In this document: positions 15,264 to 63,085 of the stretch, piece after piece
Numbering within the stretch: the stretch's first letter is position 1
Layout of the letters: the number at the start of each line of letters is the position of its first letter
Assembly: GCF_004365575.1 (NCBI RefSeq)
Contig: NZ_SOBG01000002.1
Span: 254,312 to 318,311 of the forward strand
DNA: 64,000 nt
Reading direction: 5' to 3'
Origin: Hypnocyclicus thermotrophus
GTDB taxonomy: Bacteria; Fusobacteriota; Fusobacteriia; Fusobacteriales; Fusobacteriaceae
Notes under the pieces: generated by a model
Seen by the model: the letters and a program-made list of their open reading frames with translations, nothing else
What the model was told of the DNA's origin: nothing
Databases searched by the model: none
Translations under genes and position numbers: made by a program

Positions 15264-15290
15264 TATTTTGTAAAAATAAAATAAAATAAA

Positions 15291-15390
15291 ACTGCTAGGG
15301 GAGCTTATGAAAATTTTTATTTTCAATAGCTGAGAGGAGAAATCCGACTCTTAGAACCTGATCTGGTTAATACCAGCGTAGGGAAGCGGT
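15291..15390 (+). ncRNA. TPP riboswitch (THI element)
   Basis: The conserved THI-box parts occur in order: GGGGAGC, GCTGAGAGG, GAACCTGATCTGG and TAATACCAGCGTAGGGAAG. Helix P1 pairs ACTGCT (15291-15296) with AGCGGT (15385-15390). The aptamer senses thiamine pyrophosphate and sits 164 bases before thiS, with an intrinsic terminator between. Confidence 0.97.
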
Positions 15391-15447
15391 AAATATATAT
15401 ATTATAAAATAGTAAAATATTACTATGTTTAAAAATAATAATTTATT

Positions 15448-21065: not shown

Positions 21066-21115
21066 TTTATAGAAGAAAGTATTTAGAGAATATTTCTTTA
21101 ACTTTCTTCTATAAA
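21066..21115 (+). repeat. Stable hairpin in the purL leader upstream of the aptamer
   Basis: Bases 21066-21080 (TTTATAGAAGAAAGT) pair perfectly with 21101-21115 around a 20-base loop. No T-tract follows, so it is not a terminator. It lies between the transcription start and the guanine aptamer and is not part of the known purine riboswitch fold. Confidence 0.6.
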
Positions 21116-21125
21116 AAAATAAAAA

Positions 21126-21192
21126 CACTCATATAATTCTGTAATATGGTCAGAAGTCTCTACAGGTTACCGTAAATAACCTACTATGAGTG
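21126..21192 (+). ncRNA. Guanine-type purine riboswitch
   Basis: P1 pairs CACTCATA (21126-21133) with TATGAGTG (21185-21192). The core has ATATGG in L2, TCTCTAC in J2/3, CCGTAAA in L3, and P3 AGGTTA/TAACCT. The ligand-specificity position in CTACTATG is C (21184), which pairs with guanine or hypoxanthine; the adenine class has T here. Confidence 0.96.
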
Positions 21193-21230
21193 AAATATAT
21201 TAAGCTATTTTTGTATTATTATGTTTATAA

Positions 21231-30385: not shown

Positions 30386-30402
30386 TATATAGATAAATAA
30401 AA

Positions 30403-30482
30403 TCTTGTATGACCGGCGGATAATGTGGGAAAAACTCACAGGGATTACAAGAGGATATATAAGAGCCGACCGCCTGGGCAAA
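30403..30482 (+). ncRNA. ZTP riboswitch (pfl motif)
   Basis: P1 pairs TCTTGTA (30403-30409) with TACAAGA (30446-30452). Inside are GACCGGCGG, ATGTGGGAA and CTCACAGGGA, and the second conserved block GAGCCGACCGCCTGGGC (30463-30479) forms the pseudoknot. The class senses ZTP/ZMP, the AICAR derivatives that build up when 10-formyl-THF is short, and usually turns expression on. Confidence 0.94.
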
Positions 30483-30525
30483 TTCTAGTAGAGAATTTCT
30501 GCTGTTTTTGTCTAGGCGGTTTTTA
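30470..30525 (+). terminator. ZTP-riboswitch terminator before purH
   Basis: CCGCCTGGGCAAA (from 30470) pairs with TTTTTGTCTAGGCGG (ending 30519), followed by T's. The left arm is the same sequence that forms the riboswitch pseudoknot, so ligand binding should prevent termination. Confidence 0.88.
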
Positions 30526-59289: not shown

Positions 59290-59739
59290 ATGAAACTTTC
59301 TCCAAAATATGAAAAAGCAATGGCAAATATGCAAGTAGGAATAATATCAGCACAAGGTTTTTTAGGTGATGAAGAAATAAATTTAGTTGATATTATTAAT
59401 AGAGATGAAAATGAATTTAATAAATTAGGATTAAAGTTTGATGAGGTAGCAAAAAAACTAAAATATTTATTAGAAAAAGGTCAAAAAGGGTTAGGAGAAC
59501 CTATTACAGTTGATGAAAGATGGTTAGTACAAGTATATGAAGCAAAAGGGAAAATGCCATGTCCATTTGAAGATTACATGGCTCAAAAAAGCGTAGTAAC
59601 TTTAACAGATAAAAATACAAATCATAAATTAATGTATACAGATTTATCAATACATTTAATTGAAAAGCATCATTTTTTAGAAGGAAAAGGAAGTACTTTT
59701 AGACTTGAACCTAAGATATTAAAAAAAATATTATATTAA
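59290..59739 (+). CDS. Conserved-looking protein of unknown function in the nqr operon
   Basis: I do not recognise a named family. It has 149 residues and is soluble, without signal peptide or membrane helix. Distinct motifs are KYEKAMANMQVGIISAQGFLG, the GQKGLGEPITVDERWLV segment, a single Cys in MPCPFEDYMAQ and a His-rich LSIHLIEKHHFLEGKG near the end. The compact, motif-rich sequence looks like a real conserved domain. It starts 13 bases after nqrF with AAGGAGG and ends at the operon terminator, so it is made together with the NQR subunits and may act in assembly, regulation or metal handling. Confidence 0.75.
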   Translation: MKLSPKYEKAMANMQVGIISAQGFLGDEEINLVDIINRDENEFNKLGLKFDEVAKKLKYLLEKGQKGLGEPITVDERWLVQVYEAKGKMPCPFEDYMAQKSVVTLTDKNTNHKLMYTDLSIHLIEKHHFLEGKGSTFRLEPKILKKILY

Positions 59740-59912: not shown

Positions 59913-61886
59913 TTATTTTGAAATCATTATGCCCTCTAATATATCGTTTTCAGATACTAAAATAACCCTTTTATTAAAATATTTCAATAATATTTTTAAT
60001 ATTAAAGTACCTGCTACTATAACTTCTGCTCTTTTAGGATGTAGTCCAACAATTTTTTTTCTTTCATCTATTGATTTTGACATAAATAATTCTAAATTAT
60101 TTTCAATATCTTTTATATTTAATAAATAATTGTGTATTTCTTTTGTATCATATTCTTTTAATCCCTTTAAAACTGATACTTGAGTAGTTACTGTACCAGC
60201 TACTCCAACTAACTCATATTCATCAAAATTAAAATATTTTAATTTGGTTTGATCTAACATATTATAAACAAAATTTTTCATTTTTGCAATATTTTCTTTA
60301 TATTTATCATTTTTAAAAAATTTCTCTTTTATACGTACAGAACCAAAGTTAAAACTTTTTATAAAAGAAATATTGTCTTTAGTTCCAATTATTATTTCAG
60401 TACTTCCACCACCTATATCAATAGCAATAAATTTTTTATTATCTTTAATTTCAGATAAAATACCGTTAAAACAGTAAATTCCCTCTTGTTCGCCTGAAAT
60501 ACATTTAATGTTTAAGCCAACTTCATTTTTTACTCTTGAGATAAATATATTTTTATTACTAGAATCTCTTGTAGCAGATGTTGCACAGGATTTAACATCA
60601 CTTATTTTGTATTTATCAATTATATATTTATAATTTTTTAAAACTTCAATAGTTCTTTCTATGGCACTATCTTTTAAAAAGCCATTTTTATCAACATCTT
60701 CACCAAGTCTTGTTATTTCCATAAGTTTTAAATACTTTTTATTAATATATCCATTATAAAGTTCAGCAATAAATAATCGAACACTATTAGTGCCTATGTC
60801 GATTATAGCACGAAGTTTTGTATCAGTTATTTTATCATATAATTCTTTTAATTTTTCTATTTCTAAATCAATAAATTTTACTGTACCAAGTTTTGGACAT
60901 ATAACAAGTCTTAGTTTTTCACTTTTATTTTTTTTATCTTTTTTAAAAATCTTTATCATTGTTTCAAAATCATATTTTGGTACTAAATATGACATGTTTA
61001 ATTTTTGAAATAATTCTATTTGTTTATCAACAACTTCTTTTTCTACAAGGCCTAATTCATATCCAAGTTTATTAACAAAATTCATACCAAGAATTACTGC
61101 TTCACCGTGTGTATAAACTTTATAATTAGTTATTTTTTCAATAACATGTCCATAACTATGCCCATAATTAAGTGCAGCTCTTATTCCATTTTCTTTCTCA
61201 TCTTTTGATACAACCGCTGCTTTTGTTTGACAGCTATGAAATATCATTTTAATAAAAGTATCTTTATCAAAATTATTTATTTTTTCATAATTTTTAAAGA
61301 TGAAATCATAAAATTCTTTATTAAAAGTAGCAGCCATTTTAATTATCTCTCCAAGGCCACTTTTTATTTCTCTTGTTTCTAATGTTTTTAATACACTAAT
61401 ATCTACTAAAACTAATTTTGGTTGGTAAAAACTTCCAATTATATTTTTCGCTTTGTAATTTACAGCAACTTTACCACCAATACTAGCGTCTACCTGTGAA
61501 AGAAGTGTTGTGGGTACTTGTATAAAATCAATTCCTCTCATAAAAGTAGCTGCTACATAACCGGATAAGTCACATACAACTCCTCCTCCTAGTGATATAA
61601 TAAGACTTTTTCTATTAAAATTATTTTCGAGCATAAAATCATATATTGGAAGTACAGTATCTAATTTTTTATACTCTTCTCCATCTTCTATTGTGAATGT
61701 AAATATATTATCTTTTTTTTTAAAAGAATTTAAAAATTTTTCTAAATATAAAGGTCCAACAGTAGTATTAGTGATAATAAGTATTTTTTTGTAATCATTT
61801 ATATAATTATTTATCTCATTAAAAATATTCTCTCCCATTAAAATATCATAGCTTTTTTCTTTTAAATCCACCCTTAGTTTTTCCAT
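59913..61886 (-). CDS. aroB: Fusion of 3-dehydroquinate synthase (AroB) and Ppx/GppA phosphatase
   Basis: One uninterrupted reading frame of 657 residues with two complete enzymes. Residues about 1-350 are AroB, which makes 3-dehydroquinate in the shikimate pathway: DGEEYKKL, the NAD-binding SLGGGVVCDLSGYVAATFMRG, PTTLLSQVDASIGGKVAVN, and metal ligands in GEIIK and NYGHSYGH. Residues about 358-657 are an exopolyphosphatase/pppGpp phosphatase of the ASKHA fold: AIIDIGTNSVRLFIAEL, SCATSATRDSSN, IDIGGGSTEII, VGVAGTVTTQ and the C-terminal LHPKRAEVIVAG. The join (ELYDKITDTKLR) has no internal Met or ribosome binding site. AGGAGG precedes ATG 61886, nine bases after aroK. Confidence 0.93.
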   Translation of the reverse strand: MEKLRVDLKEKSYDILMGENIFNEINNYINDYKKILIITNTTVGPLYLEKFLNSFKKKDNIFTFTIEDGEEYKKLDTVLPIYDFMLENNFNRKSLIISLGGGVVCDLSGYVAATFMRGIDFIQVPTTLLSQVDASIGGKVAVNYKAKNIIGSFYQPKLVLVDISVLKTLETREIKSGLGEIIKMAATFNKEFYDFIFKNYEKINNFDKDTFIKMIFHSCQTKAAVVSKDEKENGIRAALNYGHSYGHVIEKITNYKVYTHGEAVILGMNFVNKLGYELGLVEKEVVDKQIELFQKLNMSYLVPKYDFETMIKIFKKDKKNKSEKLRLVICPKLGTVKFIDLEIEKLKELYDKITDTKLRAIIDIGTNSVRLFIAELYNGYINKKYLKLMEITRLGEDVDKNGFLKDSAIERTIEVLKNYKYIIDKYKISDVKSCATSATRDSSNKNIFISRVKNEVGLNIKCISGEQEGIYCFNGILSEIKDNKKFIAIDIGGGSTEIIIGTKDNISFIKSFNFGSVRIKEKFFKNDKYKENIAKMKNFVYNMLDQTKLKYFNFDEYELVGVAGTVTTQVSVLKGLKEYDTKEIHNYLLNIKDIENNLELFMSKSIDERKKIVGLHPKRAEVIVAGTLILKILLKYFNKRVILVSENDILEGIMISK

Positions 61887-61894
61887 ATATCCTC

Positions 61895-62413
61895 CTACAT
61901 CTCTTCTATATAGATTTTTTTTATAATATCAGTAATTTCATCAAGATCTTCATTTTTATTATATACTTCAAAATCACAACTATTTTTATAGATATCTTTT
62001 CTATCATTTAGCAATTTTTTTATTTTTTCGTATGTATCTTTACAAATTAGTAAAGGTCTTTTATTTGGTCTTCGCATAACTCTTTTATAGATATTATCTA
62101 TACTAGTTGAGATAAGACAAATATTAGCATGTTTTCTTAATGAAAGTAAATTATTTTTATTTAAAATAGTACCTCCTCCAGTAGCAATTATAGTATTACT
62201 CATTGTTTCACATTCTTTTATTATTTCTTCTTCAAGATTTCTAAAATAGTGTTCTCCTTTTTCTTTAAAAATTTCATTGACTTTCATATTTTCTCTTTTC
62301 ATTATTTCATAGTCTAAGTCAAAAAAATTCATATCAATTTTCTTTGCTAAAACTTTACCTATTGTGGTTTTTCCTACCCCCATAAAACCAATTAAAGCTA
62401 AATTCGTTTTCAT
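61895..62413 (-). CDS. aroK: Shikimate kinase
   Basis: Phosphorylates shikimate at O3 with ATP. The 172 residues contain the P-loop GFMGVGKTTIGKVLA, FFDLDYEI with the substrate Asp, ATGGGTIL, and the lid region RPNKRPLL. The length is typical. GAGGT precedes ATG 62413. It is the first gene of the aroK, aroB-ppx, small-protein transcript, driven by the promoter at 62445-62474; other shikimate genes are not in the window. Confidence 0.95.
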   Translation of the reverse strand: MKTNLALIGFMGVGKTTIGKVLAKKIDMNFFDLDYEIMKRENMKVNEIFKEKGEHYFRNLEEEIIKECETMSNTIIATGGGTILNKNNLLSLRKHANICLISTSIDNIYKRVMRRPNKRPLLICKDTYEKIKKLLNDRKDIYKNSCDFEVYNKNEDLDEITDIIKKIYIEEM

Positions 62414-63085
62414 AGACTTTACCTCGTTATTTTATTTTACATTTAGTATATCATTTATTAGTTATATTTTTCAAGTAAAAGGGTAAATTAGATTAATAAA
62501 ATTATACTAATTTTATTAAAAGTAAATTACTTATATCTGCCAACTGAAGATATACGGAATGAGTAAAATAGATATAGGTTTTCTAAAAGAGTAGTTAAAG
62601 TTAAGAGTTCTTTTAATTTTTGACAAGCGAGTGATAGTAAATATTTTAATTTTTTTAATTATATTTTTTTTAATTATCATTTGATTAAAGGTAAAAATTT
62701 AAAAAATTAGAATACAGCGAGGTTTAAAAGTATTATAACAATTAGAGTAAAATTAAAATTGACTTATTTAAGAGAGATATGATGATAGAATATTTATTAG
62801 AGGAGCATAAAAAAATCCAGGAATTTAATCCAGGATTTTAATCTTACTTTATATATTTTCTCTTTTCTTAGGAACTATTATATACTTGATATAAAGGTTA
62901 TTTCTACTTAATTTGTTAAAGTATTTTTTGATTTTTATTATATTCTATTAAAAAAAATTAATCTTTTTTATTAATATTATCAAAACGCTTTTTCTTTATC
63001 TATTATAATTATTTCTAGCTATTAGTTTTGGGTTACTACTGGGATATTAGTTTTTTTAATATAAACTATCACCTTAAAATAATTT
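62414..63085. other. 672-base region without a recognisable gene
   Basis: Besides the aro promoter this stretch holds little. A hairpin (62814-62840, AAAATCCAGGA with TCCAGGATTTT, one mismatch) overlaps a 20-codon open frame (62779-62841) with only a weak ribosome binding site. A possible promoter, TTGACA (62620-62625) with TATTTT 16 bp on, has no gene behind it. The density of stop codons in all frames suggests decayed or non-coding DNA. Confidence 0.4.
62445..62474 (-). promoter_or_regulatory. Promoter of the aroK operon
   Basis: On the minus strand TTGAAA (62474-62469) and TATACT (62450-62445) are separated by 18 bp, 32 bases before the aroK start. Confidence 0.6.

What the first reader, a model, noticed from the sequence alone, without database searches (positions are those of the whole stretch)
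59913..61886. AroB fused to a Ppx/GppA phosphatase in one protein
A complete 3-dehydroquinate synthase (about 1-350) and a complete Ppx/GppA-like phosphatase (about 358-657) are joined in frame without an internal start. I know of no established functional link between the shikimate pathway and polyphosphate or (p)ppGpp hydrolysis. The fusion could tie aromatic amino acid synthesis to the stringent response or to a phosphate store, or AroB could use the phosphatase half for co-localisation.
Basis: partly seen in the sequence, partly recalled or inferred. Interest (0 to 1): 0.62.

Follow-up and report, generated by a model that had tools for sequence, protein, structure and literature searches.

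The report
Dehydroquinate synthase fused to Ppx/GppA phosphatase
In one family of anaerobic bacteria, the enzyme that makes the ring precursor of aromatic amino acids is permanently joined to a phosphatase of the stress-signal type; where that pathway has been lost, evolution has kept the dead first half, which suggests it helps hold the phosphatase together.

Summary
It is not a sequencing artefact: 40 of 98 genomes of the phylum carry it without internal stops (39 in one family, Fusobacteriaceae; 1 in a second family). It had one origin. The fusion is the only AroB found in this genome, whose shikimate operon lacks aroB between tyrA and aroA. The Ppx half was kept in every lineage that had the fusion. 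The AroB half was deleted in place at least three times, and in one genus (three genomes) without chorismate synthase it is catalytically dead. Yet that dead half is still under purifying selection (dN/dS 0.18, like the Ppx half at 0.175; the linker is about 0.83). Best reading: a gene read-through fusion in which AroB became a structural platform for the phosphatase. Polyphosphate is an unlikely substrate for most members: 23 of 40 fusion genomes have no polyphosphate kinase, while all have RelA/SpoT. Substrate and regulation are untested. I found no published description. New domain architecture of two known families; moderate interest.

The parts
60837..61886 (-). AroB half (residues 1-350), 3-dehydroquinate synthase with all 51 family-invariant residues, including predicted zinc ligands E180, H243, H260
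   Evidence: TIGR01357 over cut-off; PDB AroB matches at 9e-75 or weaker; residue conservation
60816..60836 (-). Junction (residues 351-357): end of a helix at 343-353, then the first Ppx strand at 357; no internal start codon
   Evidence: AF2 model; start-codon scan
59913..60815 (-). Ppx/GppA half (residues 358-657, plus stop), short form without a C-terminal domain; R440, E468, D490, E497 match the catalytic and metal-binding residues of the family
   Evidence: PF02541; Aquifex PPX/GPPA 2j4r at 1.2e-46; invariant columns; residue roles from PMC3411833
61891..61896 (-). Shine-Dalgarno AGGAGG of the fusion gene, overlapping the aroK stop codon
   Evidence: sequence
61895..62413 (-). aroK, shikimate kinase, 8 nt upstream in the same direction; aroK is also next to the gene in G040, G045, G044 and G062
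   Evidence: PF01202 146 bits; neighbour table

Best explanation
An ancient, single-origin gene fusion of Fusobacteriaceae and a neighbouring family. An ancestral aroK-aroB-ppx gene row lost the stop between aroB and ppx (inferred), giving one protein with two independent active sites. AroB makes dehydroquinate and is this genome's only AroB. The short Ppx/GppA half hydrolyses a phosphoanhydride, more likely pppGpp or another nucleotide than PPK-made polyphosphate (inferred). There is no shared intermediate and no channelling. The fusion persists because the AroB domain, a dimer in known homologues, became a structural platform for the Ppx domain (inferred). Shown here: the fusion, its conservation, one AroB clade, repeated loss of the AroB half with the Ppx half kept, and purifying selection on a dead AroB half in one genus.
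For: Full-length frames without stops in 40 genomes. Fused AroBs form one clade (100/100; 95/97 with outgroups, g12 left out). Standalone Ppx falls among fused Ppx (at least 3-4 forced label changes). G046 has aroK, 19 nt, then ppx with AroB excised, while its sister G045 has aroK-aroB::ppx. In g5b, g6, g5a, g3 and g12 the fused and standalone forms share one place: divergent htpX upstream, selD and/or selA downstream in most. G000's shikimate operon aroF-tyrA-aroA-aroC-pheA-aroE::aroK has no aroB and G000 has one AroB match. In genus g12, 20-22 of 51 AroB invariants are kept (H243 and K139 among those lost) against 36 of 36 in Ppx; chorismate synthase is absent and shikimate kinase absent or marginal; dN/dS is 0.181 (bootstrap 0.125-0.243) for the dead AroB half, 0.175 for Ppx and about 0.83 for the linker. 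PPK1 occurs in 16 of 40 fusion genomes, PPK2 in 14, neither in 23; RelA/SpoT in 40. The second Ppx paralogue occurs only in PPK1 genomes, next to PPK1 or PPK2. AF2 model: pLDDT 91.8.
Against: Several lineages use Ppx without AroB, so the platform is not indispensable; in g5b Ppx instead carries a small C-terminal partner. No direct evidence for dimerisation or substrate. Short Ppx homologues of M. tuberculosis do not hydrolyse pppGpp (PMC3411833). G000 itself has PPK1 and no second Ppx, so polyP remains possible in this organism. The g12 constraint rests mainly on one species pair with dS near saturation. Most Leptotrichiaceae-like genomes (f4) have Rel but no Ppx.
Confidence: 0.55

Rival explanations
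1. Neutral read-through fusion: two neighbouring genes lost a stop codon, both halves work as if separate, and the fusion is kept only because splitting it again is hard. No functional link.
For: Neighbour genes at this locus fuse and split repeatedly: in g5b the AroB half is gone and the small downstream gene c7 is fused to the Ppx C-terminus; G000 also has an aroE::aroK fusion. No shared pathway between the halves. AroB was deleted at least three times without loss of Ppx.
Against: The dead AroB half in g12 should then erode like the linker, but its dN/dS is 0.18 against about 0.83 for the linker.
Confidence: 0.3
2. Regulatory fusion: AroB senses NAD+ or DAHP supply and tunes (p)ppGpp hydrolysis, or Ppx state tunes aromatic synthesis, tying amino-acid synthesis to the stringent response.
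For: RelA/SpoT in 40 of 40 fusion genomes; in g14 a RelA/SpoT-domain gene lies convergent to standalone ppx; AroB binds NAD+ in known structures.
Against: In g12 NAD- and substrate-site residues are lost (G102E, K139I/T, R236E) while the domain is kept; lineages with standalone Ppx do without it; no ligand data.
Confidence: 0.1
3. Phosphate-store fusion: the Ppx half degrades polyphosphate and is coupled to AroB through phosphate release.
For: The best PDB and NCBIfam names are exopolyphosphatase; G000 has PPK1 and no other Ppx.
Against: 23 of 40 fusion genomes have no PPK1 or PPK2; PPK genomes usually carry a separate Ppx beside the kinase. TIGR03706 scores 240.5, under its cut-off of 307.
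Confidence: 0.15
4. Sequencing or assembly artefact: a missed stop or frameshift between two genes.
For: None.
Against: 40 independent genomes with the same open frame.
Confidence: 0.01

Closest known systems
Bifunctional shikimate kinase/3-dehydroquinate synthase AroKB (NF010627, NF010556) and the fungal AROM pentafunctional protein
   Same: AroB joined in frame to another enzyme; AroB is the N-terminal domain in AROM, as here
   Different: There the partners catalyse steps of the same pathway. Here the partner is a Ppx/GppA phosphatase, and aroK is a separate gene 8 nt upstream.
Aquifex aeolicus PPX/GPPA (2j4r, 1t6c), a short Ppx/GppA phosphatase
   Same: Same length and fold as the C-terminal half, with conserved catalytic residues
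   Different: A standalone protein without an AroB domain.
Mycobacterium tuberculosis Rv0496/Rv1026 short PPX-GppA proteins (PMC3411833)
   Same: Short form with the same catalytic Arg/Glu and metal-binding Asp/Glu
   Different: Standalone; Rv0496 acts on short-chain polyP, and neither hydrolyses pppGpp.
IspH-RPS1 'Rosetta stone' fusion of Clostridia and Fusobacterium nucleatum (PMC4746011)
   Same: A stable, widespread fusion of two apparently unrelated functions, reported also in a Fusobacterium
   Different: Different enzymes; no dead-domain stage is described in the passages read.

Membership tests
3-dehydroquinate synthase (AroB) | Score over the equivalog cut-off | tested here: met
   TIGR01357 363.7 bits, cut-off 305. 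The g12 members fail at 135-165 bits.
3-dehydroquinate synthase (AroB) | Zinc ligands and catalytic Lys/Arg/Asn/His | tested here: met
   E180, H243, H260, K139, K183, K222, R236, N240, H247 present and invariant in the A1 alignment, and nearly all in the 37 non-g12 fused proteins; roles assigned by alignment to known AroB, from general knowledge
3-dehydroquinate synthase (AroB) | Converts DAHP to dehydroquinate | not testable with these tools
   Inferred: sole AroB match in a genome with aroF, aroA, aroC, aroE and aroK; aroD not checked
Ppx/GppA phosphatase | Pfam gathering score and fold | tested here: met
   PF02541 192.9 bits against 27; Foldseek to 1t6c E 1.5e-28
Ppx/GppA phosphatase | Catalytic Arg/Glu and metal-binding Asp/Glu | tested here: met
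   R440, E468, D490, E497 invariant, matched to residues named in PMC3411833
Exopolyphosphatase sensu stricto (TIGR03706) | Score over the curated cut-off | tested here: not met
   240.5 bits against 307, so it is not filed as an exopolyphosphatase
GppA, pppGpp phosphohydrolase of E. coli type | Score over cut-off; extra C-terminal region | tested here: not met
   NF008260 91 bits against 624; the protein ends after the core domain
Ppx or GppA | Substrate (polyP or pppGpp) | not testable with these tools
   Only presence/absence inference
Bifunctional AroKB | Shikimate kinase domain in the same chain | tested here: not met
   aroK is a separate ORF at 61895-62413

The most novel reading that the evidence does not exclude
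The AroB domain has been taken over as a non-catalytic structural or ligand-sensing subunit of a (p)ppGpp or nucleotide phosphatase. In genus g12 it is a true pseudoenzyme retained only for that role, and in the window organism the same protein physically ties aromatic amino-acid synthesis to alarmone turnover.
Probability: 0.25. Interest if true: 0.72.

Novelty: new variant of a known kind. Interest (0 to 1): 0.5.

Why it matters
Fusions usually join steps of one pathway. This one joins a shikimate enzyme to a phosphatase with no known link to it, and it has lasted through a bacterial family. The natural series (active fusion, AroB deleted in place, AroB dead but conserved) makes the question 'what does a fused enzyme domain do once its chemistry is gone?' directly testable. 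It also warns annotators: the g12 proteins look like AroB but belong to organisms without chorismate synthase.

Tried and rejected
Artefact: rejected, 40 genomes share the frame. Internal start giving two products: no start codon near the junction in the window gene and none conserved in relatives. Polyphosphate partner: weakened by PPK1/PPK2 distribution. Riboswitch or T-box control of the gene: no Rfam match near it; promoter-like sites no more than chance and no terminator-like site. Fusion outside the phylum: none at strict E-values in 398 genomes of the phylum of G098, 296 of the phylum of a Treponema and 395 of the phylum of a Bacteroidales genome; one search overlapped. Searches had no positive control, so absence there is weak. 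Literature searches for this fusion: nothing found.

Full report
OBSERVATION. The frame is real but lies on the minus strand, 61886-59913, 657 aa. The N-terminal half scores over the AroB equivalog cut-off (TIGR01357, 363.7 bits against 305). The C-terminal half is a Ppx/GppA domain (PF02541, 192.9 bits against 27), but it falls under the cut-offs of the exopolyphosphatase and GppA equivalogs. Solved homologues cover residues 1-348 (AroB) and 360-656 (Aquifex PPX/GPPA, 2j4r). An AlphaFold2 model gives both folds at mean pLDDT 91.8. pTM is 0.69, so the relative placement of the halves is not reliable. No PDB chain in the best 50 matches covers both halves. In the window gene there is no start codon within 30 codons before the Ppx DIGTNS motif. 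aroK lies 8 nt upstream, and the Shine-Dalgarno of the fusion overlaps its stop.

DISTRIBUTION. In 98 genomes of the phylum, 40 carry the fusion as one open frame: 39 in family f1 and 1 in f2. G049 of f1 is the same DNA as L071, recorded as an uncultured Fusobacteriaceae bacterium, so f1 is Fusobacteriaceae. Samples of three other phyla gave only standalone AroB or nothing at strict thresholds.

HISTORY. Fused AroBs form one clade, apart from the standalone AroBs of f4, g14, g6 and part of g5. The standalone AroBs sit among other shikimate genes such as aroF, tyrA, aroA and aroC (DAHP synthase confirmed). Standalone Ppx sequences lie among the fused ones in the Ppx tree, needing at least 3 to 4 changes; deep nodes have only moderate support. 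Two loci show deletion in place. G046 has aroK, 19 nt, then ppx, while its sister G045 has aroK-aroB::ppx. In g5b and g6 standalone ppx sits in the same place as fused genes of g3, g5a and g12, with divergent htpX upstream and selD and/or selA downstream in most. In g5b the Ppx protein has a new C-terminal piece of about 88 residues, mostly 57-65% identical to the separate small gene that follows the fused gene in g5a genomes. So this locus fuses neighbours repeatedly. Among the lineages compared, the Ppx half is the part always kept.

THE AROB HALF IN THE WINDOW ORGANISM IS VERY PROBABLY ACTIVE. All 51 invariant residues are present. It is the only AroB match in the genome. The same contig carries aroF-tyrA-aroA-aroC-pheA-aroE::aroK, with 13 nt between tyrA and aroA, where Leptotrichiaceae-like genomes and g14 carry aroB. 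aroD was not checked.

A DEAD BUT CONSERVED AROB HALF. In the three genomes of genus g12, only 20-22 of 51 AroB invariants remain; losses include K139, R236, N240, H243 and H247. All 36 Ppx invariants remain. Their AroB scores (135-165 bits) fall far below the cut-off. These genomes lack chorismate synthase; shikimate kinase is absent in two and marginal in the third. Despite this, dN/dS between two species is 0.181 in the AroB half (bootstrap 0.125-0.243), 0.175 in the Ppx half and about 0.83 in the 26-codon linker (other pairs). The linker is a built-in control, though too short for a tight estimate. dS is about 1.4, so the ratios are rough, but they are clearly below 1 for both halves. I read this as selection for a non-catalytic role of the AroB domain. 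A new enzymatic activity of that half is not excluded.

SUBSTRATE OF THE PPX HALF. PPK1 is found in 16 of 40 fusion genomes, PPK2 in 14 and neither in 23; RelA/SpoT is found in all 40 (counts made by hand from those tables). A second Ppx is seen only in PPK1 genomes, where it lies next to PPK1 (16 genomes) or PPK2 (3 genomes). This suggests that the second paralogue serves polyphosphate and the fused one something else, perhaps pppGpp. Two cautions: the window genome has PPK1 and no second Ppx, and the two short Ppx/GppA proteins of M. tuberculosis do not hydrolyse pppGpp (PMC3411833).

MECHANISM. Shown: one protein, two intact active sites here, one origin, repeated loss of the AroB half, constraint on a dead AroB half. 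Inferred: origin by stop loss in an aroK-aroB-ppx row; AroB as a dimerising platform (AroB homologues are dimers and AroB is the N-terminal domain of AROM, from general knowledge); no metabolic channel. A purely neutral fusion remains a serious rival for lineages with an active AroB.

NOVELTY. No paper in the held library described it. Both halves belong to known families; the architecture and its pseudoenzyme stage are new to me. Databases of domain architectures, which I could not query, may already list it.

Noticed in passing
L155:8846-10162 (own genome G000:C2, about 38.8-40.2 kb): A second fusion in the same genome: shikimate dehydrogenase joined to shikimate kinase (438 aa, aroE::aroK), so the genome has two shikimate kinases.
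   Followed up: partly
L051, L053, L055, L057: In part of genus g5 the Ppx protein lost AroB and gained a C-terminal copy of a small unknown gene (c7, no Pfam match) that is a separate gene in sister species.
   Followed up: partly
L039, L040, L041 (genus g12): AroB half without catalytic residues in genomes lacking chorismate synthase; automatic annotation would probably call it 3-dehydroquinate synthase.
   Followed up: yes
L042, L044, L046, L048 (genus g14): A RelA/SpoT-domain gene lies convergent to standalone ppx, with an acylphosphatase gene between them.
   Followed up: no
G003-G053 tables: A second Ppx paralogue occurs only in genomes with PPK1 and lies next to PPK1 or PPK2.
   Followed up: partly
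window 15287-15401, 21109-21206, 30399-30486 (+): TPP, purine and ZMP/ZTP riboswitches.
   Followed up: no
window 59290-59739 (+): A 149-aa ORF convergent to the fusion gene, without Pfam match, with a counterpart in the same-genus genome G040.
   Followed up: no
window 62414-63085: About 670 nt upstream of aroK without an ORF of 80 aa or more and without an Rfam match.
   Followed up: no
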